A stretch of 64,000 bases of DNA from contig CM060199.1 of assembly GCA_030562195.1 (NCBI GenBank), forward strand, positions 12,544,338 to 12,608,337. Reading direction: 5' to 3'. The position numbers and the translations under genes were made by a program. The stretch is from Nipponacmea schrenckii (taxonomy: Eukaryota; Mollusca; Gastropoda; Lottiidae). Position 1 is the first letter of the stretch. Each line of letters begins with the position of its first letter. This document shows positions 19,635-57,005 of this stretch, one piece after another. Under the pieces are notes generated by a model. The model worked only from the letters and a program-made list of their open reading frames with translations. It was not told where the DNA came from and did no database searches.

Positions 19635-20334
19635 AAGTGGTTGCCTAGCAAGATACGCCCACTTTAAAATATATATTCTGTTTTAACACAGGCAACAACT
19701 CTAAGATTATTTAGGTCTAATCCAAGTTCTCGTCAATATAAATATAAATCAAATGGAAATTGTGATCTCTATCGCGTTCACAAGCCAATTTTGAGGCGTT
19801 TTGGCTAAGTCAAGTGCAATAACCCAAAAACCGTTCATCGAAAAATCGCCAATTTCGAACTTGTCCGAGATCTCATCAATATTAATGATCACAGAAAGTT
19901 TCATTTAAATCCGATGAAAACTGTAGTCTCTATCGCGTTCACAAACCAATTTTGACGCGTTTTGTCTAAGTCAAGTGCAATAACTCAAAAACCGTTCATC
20001 CAAAAATCGCCAATTTCGAACTTGTCCATGCACTTATCAATATAAATGATCACAGCAAGTTTCATTAAAATCCGATGAAAACTGTAGTCTCTATAGCGTT
20101 CACAAGCCAATTTTGACGCGTTTTTACTAAGTAAAGTGCAATAACTCAAAAACCGTTCATCGAAAAATTGCCAATTTCGAACTTGTCCGAGATCTCATCA
20201 ATATAAAGATTCACAGCAAGTTTCATTCAAATCTGACAAAAACTGTAGCCTCTATTGCGTTCACAAGCAATTGTGGACGGACGGACGGACAAGGGTGACG
20301 ACAATATACGACCACATTATAATGTGGGCGTATA
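19635..20334 (-). mobile_element. Pearl/Helentron-like element A (minus)
   Basis: Read on minus, it opens with a 30-bp near-perfect palindrome at 20334-20305 (tatacgcccacatt..aatgtggtcgtata). A (CCGT)n run follows (near 20275-20290), then about 3.5 tandem copies of a ~160-bp core (19730-20270), and then agtgggcgtat with a short hairpin ttgctaggcaa (19651-19641). Order, repeat length and both ends match element B. No coding capacity. The architecture resembles the pearl/CvA elements of bivalves, regarded as non-autonomous Helentrons; that assignment is by memory of the family. Confidence 0.7.
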
Positions 20335-20614
20335 AAAACGGAGTATTCCCTATGTTAACTATGTGCGCAATGACGTCAAGTAGACCTTTCAGAAAATGGC
20401 GGACAGCCTCACATACTGGCCCAAACATGGACATCCTATAACAGTTATTTATAGGATATCTATGGGCACAAAGCTCAAAGTGAGATTTGGTAAGGTCATA
20501 TAGGCGTGACGTCATCAGTCTGCACTCTAGTTATTTAAGTATTAAACGTTGGTCTCACTAGCATTATTGGTGTGTAAAGGTAGTTGATCACGTGACAAAC
20601 TGGCGTCATCAACT

Positions 20615-21258
20615 TCGAGTAAAAATTCAATGGAATATTCCTATGCTTTGTCGGATTTTATCACAGGGTCTTCGTTTTTTGCCTCGTGGGGTCTTCCTTT
20701 TGAACCTTTTTTTACATGCGTATTAATGATTCACCCTGTAGGAAAGGGAGGGGGTGATGGATTTTACTCATTTTCTTGGGAAATTGGCCTATTTACATGC
20801 TTTACCTTTGAGTGAAATTTCAATGGAATATTCCTATGCCTTGTCGGATTTTTTCACAGGGTCTTCGTTTCTTACCTCGTGGGGTCTTCCTTTTGTACCT
20901 TTTCTTTACGTCCGAATTTATGTTTCACTCTATAGCGAAGGGGGAAGGTGATGGATTTTGCTCATTTTCTGGGAAAATTGGCCTATTGACATGCTGAAAC
21001 TTCGAGTAAAATGTCAATGGAATATTCCTATGCCTTGTCGGATTTTTTTCACAGGGTCTTCTATATTTACGTTTTTGGGTCTTCCTTTTGTACCTTTTTT
21101 ACGTCCGTATTTATGTTTCACCCTGTATAGAAGGGAGGGATGATGGATTTTGCTTTTTTTCTGGGGAAATTGGCGTATTGACATGCTTAACCTTGGAGAG
21201 AAATTTCAATGAACTATTCCTATGCCTTGTTGGATTTTTTAAAAGGGTCTTCGTTTTT
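20615..21258 (+). repeat. Tandem array, ~190-bp unit, about 3.5 copies
   Basis: Repeats contain tcaatggaatattcctatgc, then ggtcttcgttttt, cctcgtggggtcttcctttt and a purine tract with ggtgatggatttt. The array is cut at 21258 by element B and resumes at 23415. Confidence 0.85.
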
Positions 21259-23414
21259 TATACGCCCACATGAAATGGGGGGCGTATATTGTCGTCACCC
21301 ACATCCGTCCGTCCGTCGGTCCGTCCGTCCGTCCGTCCACAATTGCTCGTAAACACTCTACACAGTGTAATTCTTGACGGATTTAGATGAAACTTAATAT
21401 GAGTGTTTATGATCACGCAAGGATGAACCCTATTGAAAATCAGCGAAATCGGAAAAAAATTAGTATGAGTTCGTGCCCTTGTTCTTGAATGGCTCGTAAA
21501 CACTCTACAACGTGCAATTCTTGACCGATTTTGATGAAACTTGGTGTGAGTGTATGTTATAACTCAAGGATAAACCCTATTGAAAATCAGCGAAATCGAA
21601 AAACATTTAGTATGAGTTATTGCCCTTGTTCTTGAAAACGCGTTCAATTTTAGCTTGTAAACATTCTTGAGAGAACAATTTTTAATGGATTTTAATGAAA
21701 CTTGGCCTGAGTATTTGTTATCACCCAAGGATGAAGCCTATTGAAAACCAGTCAAATCGAAAAAAAATTAATATCAGTTATTGCCCTTGTTTTTGAAAAC
21801 GCGTTCAATTTTTAGCTTGTAAACACTCTACAAAGCACATTTACTGACCAATTTTGACGAAACTTGCTGAAATTGTTTAATATCACCCAAGAATGAACCC
21901 TTTTGAAAATAGCACATATCGAAATATATTTAATAGGAATTATTGCCTTTGTTCTATAAAATGTGTTGGATTTTTGCCTTGTAAACACTCTACAAGTCAC
22001 AATTCTTGAGCGATTTTGACATAACTTGGCATGAGTATTTGTAATCACCTAAGGATGAACCCTATTGAAATTCAGTTAAATCGAAAAATATTTAGTATCA
22101 GTTATTGCCCTTGTGTTTGAATACGCGTTCAATTTTAGCTTGTAAGCACTCTAGAAAGAACAATTCTTATTGGATTTTGATAAAACTTGGCTTGAGTATT
22201 TGTTTTTAACCAAGGATGAACCATATTGAAAATCAAATAAATCGAAATATATTTAGTGTCAGTTATTGCCCTTGTGTTTGAAAACAGGTTTAACTTTTTA
22301 ATAAATACTCTAGAAGGTACAATTCATGACCAATGTTGACAAAACTCACTGAAATTGTTGGATATCGCAAGGGATGAGCCTAATTGAAAATTAAAATTAT
22401 CAAAATATATCTAATATGAATTATTGCCCTTGTTCTTTTAAACGCGTTCGATTTTTGTCTCGTAAACACTCTACATGGCACAATTCTTGATGGATTTCGA
22501 TGAAACTTGGTGTGAGAGTGTGTTATAACTCAAGGATGAACCCTATTGAAAAGCGAAATCGAAAATTTTTTTAGTATTAGTTACTGCCCTTGTTCTTGAA
22601 AACGCATTCAATTTTAGCTTGTAAACACTCTAGAAAGAACTATTCTTAATGGATTTTGATTAACTTTGGCTTGAGTATTTGTTTTTACCCAAGGATGAAC
22701 CCTATTATAAATCAAATAAATAGAAATATATTTAGTGTCAGTTATAGCCCTTGTTCTTGAAAACGCGTTCAATTTTAGCTTGTAAACACTCTAGAAAGAA
22801 CAATTTTTAAAGGATTTTGATGTAACTTGGCTGGAGTATTTGTTGTCTCCCAAGGATGAACTCTATTGAAAATCGAAAAATATTTAGTACAAGTTATTGC
22901 CCTTGTTTTTGAAAACGCGTTCAATTTAACTCGTAAACACTCTAGAAAGAACAATTTTGAATGGATTTTGATGAAGCTTGGCTTTAGTATTTGTTTTCTC
23001 ACAAGGATAAACCCTATTGAAAATCAGATAAATCGAAAAATATTTAGTGTCAGTTATTGGGCCTGTTTTCAAAATCGCTTTCAACTTTTGGCTTGTGAAC
23101 ACTCTAAACATTCATTTTTGACAAAACTCGCTGAAATTGTTTAATATCAACTAAGAATGAGCCTTATTAAGAATTAAAAATATCAAAATATTATTAAGGG
23201 TGAACCCTATTGCAAATCATAAAAATACCGACAAATATTTAATGAGTTGAGTTAGGTACAATTCTTGACAGTTTTTAATGAAACTAGAGACCCTAGAAAA
23301 AAATATATGGTGGAAGGTTGAATATTTCATTCCACTTTTGTAACCTTACTGAAAAGTTTTTATTTGAAATAAATGCTGCCAGTGGGCGTATATTACCTTG
23401 CCTGGCAAGCTATC
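21259..23414 (+). mobile_element. Pearl/Helentron-like element B with ~12 core repeats
   Basis: It starts with the imperfect palindrome tatacgcccacatgaa..ggggggcgtata (21259-21288), then ttgtcgtcaccc and a CCGT tetranucleotide run (21305-21338). About 12 tandem copies of a ~160-bp core follow; the phrase tgcccttgttcttgaaaa recurs every 147-163 bp from 21475 to 23060. The end is agtgggcgtata plus the hairpin cttgcctggcaag (23397-23409) and ctatc. No transposase. It is inserted into a T-run of the ~190-bp array, in line with insertion of Helentron-type elements at T-rich sites (family knowledge). Confidence 0.75.
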
Positions 23415-23505
23415 TTTTTACCTCGTGGGGTCTTCCTTTTTTAGGTCTTCGTCTTTTACCTCGTGGGGTCTTCCTTTTTTGGGGTCTTCGTTTTGTACAC
23501 ACCCG
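23415..23505 (+). repeat. Continuation of the ~190-bp array after element B
   Basis: tttttacctcgtggggtcttcc continues exactly where the array was broken at 21258. A second short copy of the same phrase follows, then non-repetitive sequence. This places the array before element B in time. Confidence 0.8.
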
Positions 23506-30954: not shown

Positions 30955-31475
30955 ACAAAAAGCATTAACAATAGGAGGAATACATTTAAGTGAAAATTAT
31001 AATTTCGAATAAAAATATATATATCATATGTGTCTATCAAAATACAACGGACTTAATTCAATACAAAAATATAAATAAAATTTGTGGGCATTTAATAGTC
31101 CTTAAAGAATAAATCTAGAACTAACAATCACTCAGATTTATTTGGATCTGATTTCACACAAATAGATCAAAGAGCTGTTGGTGCTCAAAAGTTATATAGC
31201 TGGCTTGGCATTTAGGGTAGGATTAAAGCATTAAAAATAGGAGGAATACATTTAAATGAAAATCATTATTTCGAATAAAAATATATATATCATATGTGTC
31301 TATCAAAATACAACGGACTTAATTAAACATAAAAATAAAAATAAAATTTGTGGGCATTTAATAGTCCTTAAAGAATAAATCTAGAACTAACAATCACTCA
31401 GACTTATTTGGATCTGATTTCACAAAGAGTTGGTGCTCAAAAGTTATATAGCTAGTTTGGCATTTAGGGTAGGAT
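30955..31475. repeat. Direct duplication (~262 bp) at the PHYHIP-like 3' end
   Basis: Two copies (about 30960-31222 and 31223-31475) share aataggaggaatacatttaa, the tract catatgtgtctatcaaaata and gttatatagct(g/a)g. The second copy reaches the stop codon region of the minus-strand gene, so the first copy looks like a duplicated 3' flank or UTR. Confidence 0.85.
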
Positions 31476-33961
31476 TTGTGACAAATTACATGCATTACAT
31501 TGAGAAGGTTTGGGGATCCCGCCTGGCCTACTTTCACCCATAACAAATTGATTCTCTAAAACGCTTTGCCTAAAATCTAAAAAACCACGTTTTTTAAATC
31601 TGTTCAGTTCTACCAGATTCACATTTTCTGTGTATAATATTTCAATATGTAAGTAGAATGCAAGAGGAACATAAAATCCATCAAGTTCGCTGTAGAAAAA
31701 TGGATTATCATTAAAATCAAGTTGAATCAATCTGTTCTTACAATATCTATCCTCTTTACTATTTATTTTAGTTAAAACTAGAGTGATATAGTGAGATTTT
31801 CCAGCTAAACAAGTAAAATCAGCAAAGTAAAGATGACAACCCTGGACAAGATATTCTGGTGGAATCATTATTCTATAGTTGCCGAAATAACTCTCATCTG
31901 GTATTTGTCCCGATGTTGTTTTTGGTGTTGCCATAAAGAATAGTCCTTTTATTTTATTATTGATGCTTGAACCTGGATCTCCATTGTTGTCTTTTAGATA
32001 TTTCTCCATGACTCCAGTTGTAAAGGCCTTGCGAATAGTAGGATGGTGGGTAGGTTTATTACGGTATAGATGACGAACTGTTGCTTTTCTCGATCCTTTT
32101 CTGCTCAAATGGTTTTCAGCCAAATCCATTAAATCACTTACATCTGCCTGTGTATTATCTGTAAAATTAAAGGTGTAAACAGCTTTATCACTTCAGCATG
32201 GATAATTGAGAACTGTTCTGGACATACGAAGTTGTTTCTGTTTGGAATCTACATGACTAATGATTTATTGTGAGGCCCATAACGAATGGTCACTTCCAGT
32301 TTTAGAATTGTTTGACCAACTATCACCAAATATAATTATAGTAAGTAGTAAGAATTAAACTTACGAGTTACTATTGATATCAGTCTAGTTTCATGAGTTA
32401 CAGTAAGTTGTTTATTTTGTTTGTGAACATTGTACAGTTGATATTCATATCTTTGTCTTGAATTCAGACGAACACTGGAACTGATAGTTTGAGTTGTAGT
32501 TCGAATTTTTTCAAAGTATCGATTACCAGTTGTTTTCTCAGTCAATAACAATATATAGTAATTGGTGTTGTAGGACAATGGGGAGTTTTTCTGTACAAAC
32601 TGAAGTGTTAATGTGTTTGGTATTGGAACATATTGGTTCACTTCTACATCCATGTCTTCTGTATTTAGGTACATGTACTGAAGAAGAGGTATATAGCTAA
32701 AAATAAAGTAATAAATTTAACAAATTCTTATATAGATGTAAGAAAATTCTGAATGCATGTATATGCCTATAGTTGGAATTGTGCATGATTCTCATGATCC
32801 GTTAATACTCCAAATATACATGTATACTTTAGATGATGTACCAAACGACTTTAATTGCTATTGAATTTTTATTATAATCTAAGTATCACATGAGTAACGG
32901 TATGATATTTTACATATTGTCATTTATACATGTACTATGGGTTTATATATTCAACTTTCTGAACATGATTTGTATCGTATGCTAGTACTTACTGCAGGTT
33001 GTTTATTTCTTCCTAGATATGTAAGTTTGAATTTATAATTTTCATAGCTGATTCTACATGATGCACTATATTTTATTTTATTATCAATCCCCATTTCATA
33101 CACAGTGATTATAAAAGGACTGTACGCATCCTCGTTTTCCATCTTCCAATCATCATTTATTTTGAAGAAATAGAAATTTAGTCTTCCCTTTTTGCGATTG
33201 TAGATACTAACAGCATACTTAGTGGATCTCCATGCAATTGGCGAAGTATAGGTGAAGGGCTTCTTCCCAACATAAATGTATTTCTGCAAGTTCATACAAA
33301 TTAACAAATCAGATAAGCATTAATAATCAATTCTGCAACTTTAAGATTGGTGTTTCTATGAAACTATATTTAAGGGACTGTAGGAATTTGAACACAGCAT
33401 TCATCACTTAAAATTGATTAGGATAGACCGAATGTCCTTGATAGATTGATATAGCAAATGGTCTGCCTAATATTTAGAAACTGAACTATTGTTGAGAAGA
33501 TAGTATTTTATTCTCTAGTCCAGAATGGGGGTTCAAATGTGGATCAGCTTTTAAGGTTGAAATTCAAATATGACAGCCCTGTGGAAGCTTATTTAATAAT
33601 ACTTTAATCTAGTCTACAATGATGTATGATTCTTAATTTGTACTCCACACAAAAGATTTACCCAAACTAAAATGTTGCTGAATGTCGGGATAGTATTCTA
33701 AGTCTACTATCATCTTGTCTATAATGTTCCTTGGTTGTTTTGGTCGAAATGACCTTTTTTGATTTTTCAGCCCAGTTTCCCCATGTCAGTGATGTAGGTC
33801 TTTGGGATTGACATAGAAAGAGCGTCTTGTGGTTCGGATGGGACAGATAACCGAGGCCCCGTGTATTACATTATCAATGGCTAAATAATTTGGACGAGTT
33901 GAAGCGACTTCAGCCATGGTATTAAATAATAACAATGTCCAAAAGACCTTACCTTGTTCAT
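31464..33961 (-). CDS. PHYHIP-like protein, copy a (435 aa, intact)
   Basis: Relative of phytanoyl-CoA hydroxylase-interacting protein (PHYHIP/PHYHIPL); no enzymatic activity is known for the family. Coding exons on minus: 33953-33961 (MNK then GTAAG), 32993-33283, 32365-32677, 31464-32158. Phases agree and the sum is 1308 bp, 435 residues. The second exon (KYIYVGKKPFTYTSPIAWRS) fills the place of the N-terminal region before the conserved C-terminal domain. The C-terminal domain is clear: MEKYLKDNNGDPGSSI, GLFFMATPKTTSGQIPDES, LYFADFTCLAGKSHYITLVL and CKNRLIQLDFNDNPFFY follow human PHYHIP (YLKDNSGSHGSP, YFADFYCMYTAYHY). It ends with a CNAC pair as PHYHIP ends with CKTC. The start is chosen because the MNK exon and donor recur in the other copies at 35979 and 40630. 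Confidence 0.85.
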
Positions 33962-37540: not shown

Positions 37541-38365
37541 CTGATCATAAAATTTTAAATTTTATTGTCATAAAGTCAAATTTGTAGGCAGCAAGTTGTG
37601 TCTTTCCAACCCTGTTTTCAGTTATGTAACTCTTATTCAGTACATAAATACAGAACATAATGGATGTAGAAGTGAAAACATGTTCCAGTACCAAACACAT
37701 TAACACTTCAGTTTGTAAGAAAAAACACCCTTTTAACATCATGGAGAATAATCACGGAAATAAATTCAGAATCGGAAATAACATATCTTGGGGAAAAAAA
37801 ACAACCGGCAGTAAGTACTATCATAACTTTATTAATGTCATATTCGGAATTCTAATATTAATCAATAAATTACATATATTTATGATGATATGTGTTTTGT
37901 AGTTTGGTACATCATCCAAATTAAAAGGATGCATTCAATGGATTGTATACATCGTATCAGCTAAGAGGAATTACTGATCATAAAATTTAAATGATTGTCA
38001 TACAAGTCAAATTGTGTCTTTCCAATCCCTGTTTTCAGATAATTTTACTCTTATTCAGTACCTAAATACAGAACACATGGATGTAGAAATGAACCAACAT
38101 GTTCCAGTACCAAACACATTAACACTTCAGTTTGTACAGAAAAACTCCCCATTGTCCTACAACACCAATTACTATATATTGTTATTGACTGAGAAAACAA
38201 CTGGTAATCGATACCTTGAAAAAATACGAACTACAAGTCAAACTATCAGTTCCAGCATTCGTCTGAATTCAAGACAAAGATATGAATATCAACTTTACAA
38301 TGTTCACAAACAAAATAAACAACTTACTGTAACTCATGAAACTAGACTAATATCAATAGTAACTC
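37541..38365 (+). repeat. ~430-bp duplication of the copy b third exon
   Basis: 37541-37815 and 37966-38365 share ggaattactgatcataaaat, ctttccaa(t)ccctgttttcag, cttattcagtac and the exon itself. The first copy (from about 37638) is damaged in frame and ends in a short run before GTAAG; the second is open. Confidence 0.8.
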
Positions 38366-39659
38366 GTAAGTTTAATTCTTACTACTTACACATGAAAGTT
38401 TATTGTATTTGGTTAAAGTATGTCCAGTAATATAAACCACGGAAGGAACATGCCGTTGCTATGGTCAAATGTCAAAAAGATCATATTATCTTCTGAAAAG
38501 GTCTCTGTAGCTTTAAGTGGGATGCATCTGTCGAGTTGCCATCTCATCTCTTTCTTAAACATCTTTGTAAGCTTTTTACGAATTTCTCATTCTCATTTAT
38601 GGTTGATCGCAAGTTATTTTAGCAAAACACAGTCAAATCCAGCCCTGCAGCAGAGAGGACATTAATGTGAACAGTTAATTGAACCTAACTTTTATTTTAC
38701 AGATAATACACAGGCAGATGTAAGTGATTTAATGGATCTGGCTGAAAACCACTTGAGCATAAAAGGATCAAGAAAAGCAACAGTTCGTCATCTATACCGT
38801 AATAAACCTACCCACCATCCTACTATTCGTCAGGCCTTAGCAACTGGAGTCATGGAGAAATATCTAAAAGACAAAAATGGAGATCCCGGTTCAAGCATCA
38901 ATACTAACATAGATGGACTATTCTTTATGGCAACACCAAAAACAACATCGGGACAAATACCAGATGAGAGTTATTTTGGCAACTATAGAATAATGATTCC
39001 ACCAGACTATCTTGTCCAGGGTTGTCATCTTTACTTTGCTGATTTTACTTGTTTAGCTGGAAAATCTCACTATATCACACTAGTTTTAACTAAAATAAAT
39101 AGTAAAGAGGATAGATATTGTAAGAATAGATTGGTTCAACTTGATTTTAATGATAATCCATTTTTCTACAGCGAACATGGCGGATTTTATGTTCCCCTTG
39201 CATTCTACTTACATATTGAAATATTATACACAGAAAATGTGAATCTAGTAGAACTGATGAGATTAAGCAACGTGGTTTATTAGATTTTAAACAAAAAGTT
39301 TTAGAGAGTCACTTAGTTAAAGGTCGTGGTGAAAGTAGGCCAGGCGGAATCCCCAAACCTTCTCAATGTAAAGAATGTAATTTGCCACCAATTCTTCCCA
39401 ATGTAGGCCTACTATTTTCTTTATTTCAAAGATAAACACTTTAAAAGTAAGCTTCGTAAATAGTTGTTGAGCTACAAGTATCCTCAAGTTTTGACATCCT
39501 TGGGAGATCTGAAACCTGAAAGATTTGTGCTCAATACCTCCTCATTGAATGTCAGTCAAATTTTAATGAAAATTCCTTCTAAAACTTTGTTCAGTGCTTT
39601 TTTTTTTTTGCTTATTAATATGAACGTGATTCGACGGTTTATTTGAAACTACAATAACC

Positions 39660-54361: not shown

Positions 54362-54749
54362 ATATTCACGTTATGAATCTTACGACCATGATCATAAACC
54401 GGCTACGATCATTCTGCATGTAGGCCTCAACAATCGTGACCAGTTAGCCAAAACCTCATTTAACCAAGCCCAGAAATTAATTTCCACAGCCAACCAAACC
54501 TTTCCTAGCTCCAAGATCATCTTTTCTTGTATACCTATCTCTAATAAAAACTCTAAGAAAGCCCAGCACAATCTTAAGACATTCAACGATATGATGATGA
54601 ACTCCGACATTGAGAACGCAACAATCCTGTCACCCTACGAAGAAGAATTCGAACCAGTTGATAATCTTCATTGGTCTCCGGAAACAGCCAACAATATATA
54701 CTTGTTTTGGATACACCAGCTTCAAGCACCGGGTAAGTCTTTAAACTAA
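54362..54749 (+). CDS. SGNH-hydrolase-like ORF, 5'-truncated, of the PLE
   Basis: The frame reads KPATIILHVGLNNRDQLAKT, then SSKIIFSCIPISNKNS and EPVDNLHWSPETANN. The hydrophobic strand plus GLNN resembles block III (GxND) and DNLH resembles block V (DxxH) of SGNH/GDSL esterases; block I with the nucleophilic serine would lie upstream of the truncation. It stops at 54,749 immediately before the Penelope reverse-transcriptase frame opens, in a different frame. Assignment is inference from motif spacing. Confidence 0.55.
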
Positions 54750-57005
54750 TTACTGGGGATAAAAATATTGAGAGGCCGCCGCTAGGCCAAACCGTCGTTA
54801 ACTTAAGCCGAAAAATTCTCACACCCCTCCAGCATTCAATCTTAGACCGTGGACTTAAATTTATTCCGACTCCTAAATTACCTAACCTTGATTATCTTCA
54901 ACCGTCTATTCAACGATTTCAACGGAATCTCAGTTGCACATACTTTTTTCGAAACCACCCTCCACGCGGTGCTAGAACAATGTTTAATCCTAAATCCACG
55001 TGGAAACCACCTAAAACCGCTATCCATCCAGAAATATTAAACGTATTTACAAGTATGAATAACCAAATATCAAATCTTTCCATAACACACGAGAAGCCTA
55101 ATCTAACGCGAGTAGAACGTGAAGCATTAAATGTACTTAAAAAAGACGATAGCATTGTAATTAAAAAGAGTGACAAAGGTTCATGTTGCGTTATATTAAA
55201 TAGGGGAGATTATATTGCAGAAGCAGAGTATCAATTGAATAATCCTAAACACTATGCAATTTTACCGGAGCCGATTTTTAAAGAAACTGCTAATAGGATA
55301 AACAATATTCTTGCCGACTTAGTTAAAACAAGTCATTTAAAACAGAAACAATATGACTATCTTTCTGCCAAACCTGATTGCCGCGAGAGACACTTATACA
55401 CTTTGCCGAAAATTCATAAGAATCCTACCAAGGATTGGTTCATGCCTAATAGAATCCCTAAAGGCCGCCCGATTATCTCTGACTGTGGTAGTGAGTCTTA
55501 TGCAGTGTCAGAATACATCGATCATTTCTTACTACCACTAGCATGTCAACATCGAGCCTACCTTAAGGACACAACTGACTTTGTCAATAAAATAAAAAAC
55601 CTCAGTCCCTTCAAATGCTATTCTAATTTCAATAGACGTAACTTCTATGTACACCAATATCGACAACACTACTGGCCTAATGGCAGTTCGCAAAGCTTTT
55701 GATAGAAACTCAGATCCAGACAGACCCGACGATGCAATTCTACAGCTTTTAGAGATTTGTCTTAGTCGCAATGATTTCACATTTAATGGTAAAACATATC
55801 TACAAACCTCAGGTACAGCTATGGGCAAACGATTCGCCCCTTCATACGCAAACCTTTTCATGGCAGAGTGGGAACGTGAGGTATTACCCCTTTGTCCATT
55901 TGACCCACTTTTCTATGGACGCTTCTTAGATGACATTTTCATGGTTTGGACTTACTCCATAGAACAATTTTGGCAATTTTTTGAAATCCTCAACAACCAC
56001 CACCCGTCCATCAAACTAACAGCCAGCGTCAGTCACAAAAACATAGATTTTCTCGATACTACTGTTTTTAAAGGAGATTCCATAGCAGAGACTAATAAAT
56101 TAGATATTAAAGTATATTTCAAAGAAACCGACACTCATCAACTTTTGCATAAGAGCTCATTTCATCCAAAACATACATTTTCTGGAATTATTAAGTCACA
56201 AGTTTTACGATTTCGCCGAATTTGCACAAGGCCTTCTGATTTCAACCAAGCCTGTACGATTGTTTTCTCAAAACTGAAAGAGCGTGGATACTCTAAACGA
56301 TTTTTACGAAACATAACAAATTCCACATTAGCACCTTTAGCAGCTAAAAATAGACTTTATGCCGAAGGGCCTCCAGGTTTAAGGAGTGCCCCATGTATGT
56401 CAACCAGATGCAAAACATGTCCCTTTATATCAGAAACGCATTATTTTCAAAGTAACTCTACGAATAAAAGATACCCGATCCAAGAGCACCTAACATGTGA
56501 AAACTCGAATGTAATATACTTAATTTCATGTAAAAAATGTCCCAAACAATATATCGGGGAAACAAAGAACAAATTACGCACTCGTTTTAATGCTCACAGA
56601 TCAGATATTAAATTAAAAAAAGACAAGCCTGTTTCTAACCATTTCAATCTTGACGACCATTCACTTGACGATCTCACCCTAACCCCAATTGAGCGCATAG
56701 AAGTCGACTTGCCCGAAGATGAAACTACCAAATTCCGTCAATCTAGAGAAGCCCATTGGATTGAGACATTGAATACAGCAAGACCCATAGGACTTAATAT
56801 TCACCACAGTGTAGGCATAGCACCCTTTGTAGTTCCATTTAATACAACCAGTAATAAAGCAAGTAAGATAGTTCAAACCCATTATAAGAGTCTTCAAGAG
56901 AAATTTCCTCATGTCTATAAACAGAAAGTGATAGTGGCATATTCAAAAAATCAGAACTTAAATGACAACCTTGTTCATAGCAAACTAAAAATAATCTGTA
57001 CTTAA
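54750..57005 (+). CDS. Penelope-like element RT with GIY-YIG endonuclease
   Basis: Single-ORF retroelement enzyme that copies RNA at a nick made by its own endonuclease. It is open from about 54,750 (RPPLGQTVVNLSRKILTPLQ) to about 55,608, then one indel shifts the frame; the rest is open to 57,005. RT motifs: GSCCVILNRGDYIAE, LPKIHKNP, GRPIISDC, ISIDVTSMYTNI (motif A, 55,629), GTAMGKRFAPSYANLFM and FLDDIFMVW (catalytic DD). Linker cysteines are CMSTRCKTC. The GIY-YIG domain is VIYLISCKKCPKQYIGET, LRTRFNAHRSDI and the glutamate helix SREAHWIETLN. It would be intact but for the single shift near 55,608, so it is young. It lies inside, and opposite to, the Ty3/gypsy element. Confidence 0.93.

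What the first reader, a model, noticed from the sequence alone, without database searches (positions are those of the whole stretch)
21245..23430. Element B insertion with readable pre-insertion site
The ~190-bp array reads ggtcttcgttttttgcctcg at 20,668 and ggtcttcgtttcttacctcg at 20,859. It breaks inside the T-run at 21,258 and resumes tttttacctcgtgg at 23,415. This defines both ends of a 2.15-kb element: a TATACGCCC palindrome at the 5' end, and the cttgcctggcaag hairpin plus ctatc at the 3' end, with insertion within T's. It is a clean natural experiment for how pearl/Helentron-type elements choose sites.
Basis: partly seen in the sequence, partly recalled or inferred. Interest (0 to 1): 0.75.

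Follow-up and report, generated by a model that had tools for sequence, protein, structure and literature searches.

The report
Non-autonomous Helentron in a T-run
It is a 2.15-kb parasitic DNA element that cannot move by itself, of a known rolling-circle type, inserted in a run of T's inside a repeated sequence; dozens of near-identical copies in the same mollusc-like genome show that it lands near the start of T-runs.

Summary
Element B (about 21257/21259 to 23414/23416, + strand) interrupts a 193-bp tandem array in a T-run. It has the parts of a non-autonomous Helentron (HINE, "pearl" type): 11-bp subterminal inverted repeats, a 5' hairpin, a TCCG microsatellite, twelve ~160-bp monomers, a 3' palindrome and CTATC. 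Genome searches scored 40 copies from each end (of 1307 and 707 candidates); 24 full-length copies are on average 97.5% alike. The genome also encodes Rep, PIF1 and endonuclease domains in one Helentron-type frame, but none of the 9 tails read carries B's 3' end, so the partner is unidentified.

The window's own site is a poor ruler: 11 T's now against a 6-letter run in 20 of 20 sibling units fetched (5 extra). In 9 of 11 informative empty sites exactly 3 letters are added. In 28 runs of five or more T's the cut follows the fourth T in 20 and the fifth in 8, never later. This refines the published TT/TTTT target rule. New member of a known kind; modest interest.

The parts
20611..21253 (+). 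Left part of the 193-bp tandem array that was invaded (3.4 units)
   Evidence: TRF period 193, 84% matches; the unit has 494 matches in 40 scored regions of the genome
21254..21259 (+). T-run at the 5' junction (6 T; part host, part element)
   Evidence: 5 T's in 28 of 36 copies and 19 of 20
21259..21269 (+). 5' subterminal inverted repeat TATACGCCCAC
   Evidence: perfect inverted match to 23382-23392; exact in 36 of 36 copies that were found by this end
21280..21288 (+). Inverted repeat GGGCGTATA closing the 5' hairpin
   Evidence: hairpin -9.7 kcal/mol, 0 of 200 shuffles as good
21304..21338 (+). (TCCG)n microsatellite, 8.8 copies
21341..23250 (+). Central array of twelve ~147-162-bp monomers, 43-87% alike to each other
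23382..23392 (+). 3' subterminal inverted repeat GTGGGCGTATA
   Evidence: exact in 32 of 36 copies found by the 5' end
23397..23409 (+). 3' palindrome CTTGCCTGGCAAG
   Evidence: exact in 32 of 36 copies found by the 5' end
23410..23416 (+). 3' terminus CTATC followed by TT; the TT is either element or target
   Evidence: CTATC followed by at least TT in 31 of 32 and 26 of 27 copies
23415..23498 (+). Right part of the invaded array (26-29 bp of the 193-bp unit, then a 38-bp period)
19640..20340 (-). Element A: a second, diverged, shorter HINE in opposite orientation (5' subTIR 20324-20334, hairpin 19640-19652, 3.3 x 161-bp repeats 19745-20272); its 3' end is not fixed
   Evidence: 63 bp at the 5' end 85.7% identical to B

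Best explanation
Element B is one copy of a recently amplified non-autonomous Helentron (HINE, pearl type) in an animal whose nearest named proteins are limpet. It has no recognisable coding sequence and is presumably copied in trans by a Rep/helicase/endonuclease protein of an autonomous Helentron. Shown: shared ends, hairpin, fixed repeat cargo, T-run targets, a gain of exactly 3 letters in 9 of 11 empty-site comparisons. Inferred: rolling-circle copying of one strand between the two ends and joining into a nicked T-run. Two parses fit equally: (a) element T-ATACGCCC...CTATCTT placed right after TTTT, or (b) element TTT-ATACGCCC...CTATC placed at TT^TT. In either case the cut is close to the 5' edge of the T-run.
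For: Anatomy; no Pfam match in the two longest frames of B. Copies: 40 of 1307 candidates scored with the 5' query, window included, 98-100% identical; 40 of 707 scored with the 3' query, all 100%. 24 full-length copies: pairwise mean 97.5%, range 96.1-99.9%, while monomers within the window copy are 43-87% alike. T-run of 5 or 6 before ATACGCCC in 35 of 36 copies and in 20 of 21 copies chosen by the 3' end. Empty sites: 32 chimeras tried, 12 with spanning hits, 11 informative, +3 in 9. Position: 28 runs of five or more T's, after the 4th T in 20, the 5th in 8, later 0; in the sample chosen by the 3' end alone 10 and 1 of 11, P about 5e-4 for the summed position against a uniform choice. Proteins: 59 Helitron_like_N matches; L102 and L110, one continuous frame, carry DUF6570, Helitron_like_N, PIF1 and C-terminal Exo_endo_phos.
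Against: No partner with these ends: 9 tails read of 59 Rep matches, 0 with B's 3' end. The window copy gains 5 T's, not 3; L013 is ambiguous (+3 or +4). One of 27 copies (L054/L055) has a 9-12-bp duplication at a TATC microhomology; L012 perhaps 3 bp (no empty site). In more diverged relatives inside the fetched loci only 6 of 10 full 5' ends have 5 or 6 T's, the others 3, 2, 2 and 0. The first sample was drawn with T's in its query and has more 6-T copies (7 of 36 against 1 of 20). For the second sample alone, the absence of cuts beyond the fifth T is not significant (P 0.087). A duplication of 1-2 T's cannot be told from element-borne T's. The 3' palindrome alone is little better than chance and is not the minimum-energy fold of the 3' end.
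Confidence: 0.85

Rival explanations
1. A MITE moved by a cut-and-paste transposase, with TIR TATACGCCC and a poly-T target duplication of 5 bp.
For: Inverted repeats at both ends and T's on both sides; at the window site 5 extra T's could be a TTTTT duplication.
Against: The inverted repeats are subterminal and asymmetric: the 3' one is followed by a palindrome and CTATC. Other sites gain 3, and the sites with only four T's exclude a duplication of 3 or more (inference). The 5' side is nearly fixed and the 3' side variable.
Confidence: 0.03
2. Canonical Helitron (Helitron1), inserting between A and T with 5' TC and 3' CTRR.
For: 3' hairpin a few bases from the end; Helitron_like_N matches in the genome.
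Against: No 5' TC, no 3' CTRR, a 5' hairpin is present, insertion in T's.
Confidence: 0.02
3. Helitron2-group element moved by a Rep/helicase without the endonuclease domain; same ends and TTTT target, but not a Helentron in the strict sense.
For: The ends also fit Helitron2 as described in PMC3627910 (two hairpins, asymmetric inverted repeats, insertion after TTTT; passages). The cognate partner is unknown.
Against: One frame (L102/L110) has a Pfam endonuclease domain; eight other tails end in similar residues by eye only, and their continuity with the Rep matches was not checked.
Confidence: 0.1
4. The T gain and edge preference are an artefact of T-run slippage after insertion and of sampling.
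For: The first sample was drawn with T's in the query; the window copy departs by 2 T's; diverged relatives are less regular.
Against: The second sample, chosen by the 3' end only, gives 5 T's in 19 of 20 and the same tendency; 9 of 11 empty sites agree.
Confidence: 0.1

Closest known systems
Cg_HINE elements of Crassostrea gigas (PMC7492417; abstract, passages, section 9)
   Same: Module order 5' subTIR, complementary IR, microsatellite (GTCC among others), central satellite-like repeats, 3' subTIR, palindrome; subTIR 11-12 bp; T-rich target; no TSD; empty sites used.
   Different: Sequences could not be compared (their consensus sequences are in figures and supplements not open to me). Here the number of added T's and the position in the T-run are counted.
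HINE / DINE-1 (PMC4067079; passages, section 16)
   Same: subTIR, IR, 3' stem-loop, TT insertion, no TSD, paralogous empty sites as proof, T's at the element ends.
   Different: That paper reports a variable number of T's and proposes indiscriminate cutting between T's; here the gain is 3 in 9 of 11 sites and the cut sits near the 5' edge of the run.
pearl elements of bivalves (Gaffney et al. 2003; not read, known here through PMC7492417)
   Same: ~160-bp core repeats; later re-filed as non-autonomous Helentrons.
   Different: B carries twelve monomers, pearl up to six; sequence not compared.
Helitron2 / Helitron-1N1_CRe of Chlamydomonas (PMC3627910; passages)
   Same: Two hairpins, asymmetric inverted repeats, insertion right after TTTT, no TSD in regular copies, relatives with 7-19-bp duplications (compare L054/L055).
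   Different: Alga; in the passages read no tandem-repeat cargo and no statement on position within longer T-runs.

Membership tests
HINE (non-autonomous Helentron) | 11-15-bp subterminal inverted repeats at both ends | tested here: met
   11-bp perfect match, 0 of 5000 shuffles
HINE (non-autonomous Helentron) | IR or palindrome next to the 5' subTIR | tested here: met
   GGGCGTATA 21280-21288; 5' hairpin z -3.3, 5 of 5000 shuffles
HINE (non-autonomous Helentron) | 3' palindrome close to the end | tested here: met
   CTTGCCTGGCAAG, 5-7 bp from the end, exact in 32 of 36 copies; alone not far beyond chance (207 of 5000) and not the minimum-energy fold of the 40-nt end
HINE (non-autonomous Helentron) | T-rich target, TT insertion, no TSD | tested here: met
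   1-2 T of duplication cannot be excluded; one copy of 27 with a 9-12-bp duplication
HINE (non-autonomous Helentron) | No coding capacity; microsatellite and tandem repeats inside | tested here: met
   longest stop-to-stop frames 101 and 94 aa, no Pfam match in either
HINE (non-autonomous Helentron) | Autonomous Helentron partner sharing the ends | tested here: inconclusive
   59 Rep matches in the genome; 9 tails read, none with B's 3' end; the pattern search of the genome did not complete
Helitron1 | 5' TC, 3' CTRR, insertion between A and T | tested here: not met
Helitron2 (without endonuclease) | Two hairpins, asymmetric inverted repeats, insertion after TTTT | tested here: met
   the ends do not separate Helitron2 from Helentron
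Helitron2 (without endonuclease) | Partner protein lacking the endonuclease domain | not tested
   partner unknown
Rolling-circle transposition | Single-strand copying, circular intermediate | not testable with these tools
   needs experiment

The most novel reading that the evidence does not exclude
Helentron-type insertion has a fixed register: the enzyme reads the 5' edge of a T-run (non-T followed by TTTT), cuts after the fourth T (sometimes the fifth) whatever the run's length, and every insertion adds the same three T's, so the donor and target cuts have the same sequence. That would replace the published idea of indiscriminate cutting between T's by a measured one, and give a defined substrate for testing the captured LINE-type endonuclease.
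Probability: 0.5. Interest if true: 0.45.

Novelty: new member of a known kind. Interest (0 to 1): 0.3.

Why it matters
Where Helentrons cut, and whether the T's belong to element or host, has been left open because T-runs hide the breakpoint (PMC4067079). A young family with dozens of near-identical copies, some nested in their own family, lets the T's be counted. It also shows an array of twelve diverged monomers travelling as fixed cargo, as described for oyster HINEs, now in a genome with limpet-like proteins.

Tried and rejected
Pattern scans of viral contigs and genome contigs: nothing. Rfam and tRNA scans of the window: nothing. Text search for the end sequences in papers: two unrelated papers. 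Protein searches only to place the organism: PHYHIP-like ORF, best Lottia gigantea 80%; BEL/Pao ORF, not informative on species. Base before the T-run: A in 29 of 49 against 52% background, not significant; run lengths follow the supply of positions (21 of 49 four-T runs against 44%). Partner search: 9 tails, none fits; one chance hit to the subTIR with 2 mismatches in L113, without hairpin. Of the 7 copies without a 5' end at the expected place, five have sequence there with no match to B or A, one (L068) has B-like repeats and one (L070) has a 5' end with the hairpin arm deleted and TTATT before it.

Rows dropped: 4 of 39 fetched copies (L027, L034, L043, L045) and 13 of the 40 places, because contig C3 holds them twice at an offset of exactly 29,626,336. 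In the empty-site test 4 of 36 copies without an intact CTATC end were not tried, and L029 (hits only to its own locus) was dropped. In one search, copies without a CTATC end or 5' end, with fewer than 5 T's left or 2 T's right were left out (30 of 36 and 19 of 27 remain); the window copy is counted there as a run of 8, as its T's stand.

Because of these the odds went from 0.92 to 0.85 (best reading), 0.15 to 0.1 (Helitron2, so that the odds add up) and 0.55 to 0.5 (novel case).

Full report
WHAT IS THERE. The window is animal DNA: among its coding remnants are a P-element-like transposase, BEL/Pao, an integrase-bearing retroelement, a GIY-YIG reverse transcriptase and PHYHIP-like genes. The best named protein match is from the limpet Lottia gigantea, 80% identical, so I call it limpet-like; the genome itself is unnamed (G000, 399 Mb, window at C8:12544338). 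A 193-bp tandem array (20611 on) is broken in a T-run at 21254-21259 and resumes at 23415. The joined flanks align ungapped to array unit 2 over 124 columns once 5 T's are taken out. The right flank carries only 26-29 bp of the 193-bp unit before turning into a 38-bp repeat.

ANATOMY. Reading 5' to 3': T's; TATACGCCCAC; a complementary GGGCGTATA that makes a 5' hairpin (-9.7 kcal/mol, 0 of 200 shuffles as good); a TCCG microsatellite; twelve 147-162-bp monomers; GTGGGCGTATA; the palindrome CTTGCCTGGCAAG; CTATC; T's. In shuffles of the ends the 11-bp inverted match was reached in 0, the 5' inverted repeat in 5, the 3' palindrome arm in 207 and all three in 0 of 5000. The 3' palindrome alone is therefore weak evidence, and it is not the minimum-energy fold of the 40-nt 3' end; its weight comes from position and from its exact presence in 32 of 36 copies found by the other end. 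The two longest frames in B (101 and 94 aa) match no Pfam family. A second, diverged copy (element A, about 19640-20340, minus strand) shares 63 bp of the 5' end at 85.7%.

COPIES. With 356 bp across the 5' end as query the genome search scored 40 of 1307 candidates, window included, 98-100% identical. With the last 125 bp it scored 40 of 707, all 100%. Both are capped lists, so the copies are the best-scoring ones. I fetched the 39 others of the first set and the junctions of 27 of the second. Contig C3 repeats itself at half its length, so 4 of the 39 and 13 of the 40 are duplicates and were dropped. That leaves 36 copies with the window's own, and 27. Twenty-four full-length copies (2083-2169 bp) are on average 97.5% alike (96.1-99.9%), but the monomers inside the window copy only 43-87%. 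The array is thus old and fixed cargo, amplified recently with its element.

ENDS AND TARGETS. In the first set the T-run before ATACGCCC is 5 in 28, 6 in 7 and interrupted (TTTGT) in 1 of 36; CTATC is intact in 32, followed by at least TT in 31. That sample was drawn with T's in the query, so I used the second, drawn by the 3' end alone: 5' end found in 20 of 27, with 5 T's in 19 and 6 in 1; at least TT after CTATC in 26 of 27. A further 5' end, lacking the hairpin arm, has TTATT (L070). More diverged relatives inside the fetched loci are less regular: 6 of 10 full 5' ends have 5 or 6 T's, the others 3, 2, 2 and 0.

EMPTY SITES. Of 32 joined-flank chimeras, 12 gave hits spanning the junction; one (L029) only to its own locus. 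Of 11 informative, 9 (L017, L018, L019, L023, L028, L036, L042, L046, L047) align without a gap at the junction if exactly 3 letters are attributed to the insertion; L023 has one mismatch in the run, and the 3 letters of L046 read TGT. L019, L023, L028 and L036 sit in copies of their own family. L013 is +3 or +4. The window copy is +5: the corresponding run is 6 letters long in 20 of 20 units that I picked from the listing (one with a G in it) and in units 1 and 2 of the window. Sites with only four T's exclude a duplication of 3 or more, but 0, 1 or 2 duplicated T's fit equally. Hence two parses: T-ATACGCCC...CTATCTT placed after TTTT, or TTT-ATACGCCC...CTATC placed at TT^TT.

POSITION IN THE RUN. 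Taking the gain of 3, 49 sites can be placed. In 28 with runs of five or more, the cut follows the fourth T in 20 and the fifth in 8, never later (first parse; second and third T in the other). Against a uniform choice no simulation of 200,000 had so low a sum, and a share of 5e-6 had no later cut. For the second sample alone (11 such sites, 10 and 1) the sum has P about 5e-4, but the absence of later cuts only 0.087. Bases before the run show no significant preference. The share of four-T runs (21 of 49) equals the supply of positions in the window's own sequence (44%).

IRREGULAR COPY. In L054/L055 the 3' end joins the host 9-12 bp upstream of the T-run's end at a TATC microhomology, leaving a short duplication. 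Chlamydomonas Helitron2 relatives are reported with 7-19-bp duplications next to TTTT (PMC3627910, passages).

PARTNER. The genome has 59 matches to Helitron_like_N, 18 of them in open frames above 2,000 codons; the same search rang in 0 of 14 control genomes. L102 with L110, one continuous frame, shows DUF6570, Helitron_like_N, PIF1 and a C-terminal Exo_endo_phos domain, the Helentron layout. Eight other tails, placed by their distance from Rep matches, end in similar residues by eye; their continuity with the Rep domain was not checked. None of the 9 tails (about 1.6 kb for eight, 3.3 kb for L110) has B's 3' end. The partner may be among the matches not read, or lost. Rolling-circle movement is therefore inferred from family membership.

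COMPARISON. Module order and sizes are those of Cg_HINE (PMC7492417: abstract, passages, section 9) and DINE-1/HINE (PMC4067079: passages, section 16). The latter reports variable T numbers and proposes indiscriminate cutting between T's. PMC5148889 (passages) sums up Helitron2 as inserting between TTTT and T or C, and Helentrons in TT, and saw no variation of T's at 3' ends of its fungal Helitrons. In the papers found by searches, and in the passages I read, I saw no count of added T's tied to position within the run; most were seen only as listings, and supplements were not open to me.

VERDICT. The element is a new member of a known kind. What is perhaps new is the register of insertion. 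Interest 0.3.

Noticed in passing
G000:C3 (loci L026/L027, L033/L034, L042/L043, L044/L045): Contig C3 (59,252,672 bp) carries 4 of the copies and 13 of those twice, at an offset of exactly 29,626,336 bp, half its length: probably an exact tandem duplication in the assembly.
   Followed up: partly
window 20611-21260 and genome places: The invaded 193-bp repeat is a dispersed family (494 matches in 40 scored regions). In 12 loci of the capped listing (e.g. C10:12101221-12105404, C8:17854216-17856636, C3:21673639-21679467) a minus-strand arm is followed by a plus-strand arm; I saw no locus there with the reverse order. It looks like a foldback element with tandem-repeat arms.
   Followed up: partly
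window 21054-21085: The third array unit differs from its siblings in just the ~15 bp where element B inserted in the fourth (TATATTTACGTTTTT in place of GTTTTTTACCTCGTG).
   Followed up: no
window 31464-33319 (-) and 37984-39283 (+): Two PHYHIP-like gene copies in opposite orientation, 92% identical over 192 aa; the second is 86% identical over 179 aa to a Lottia gigantea protein.
   Followed up: partly
L102 and L110 (G000:C14, about 19385530-19394600): Helentron-type giant frame with N-terminal tandem repeats of a LKxKY motif ahead of DUF6570, Rep, PIF1 and endonuclease domains.
   Followed up: partly
window 54737-57005 (+): Reverse transcriptase followed by a GIY-YIG domain, Penelope-like (the name is recalled; domains).
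   Followed up: no
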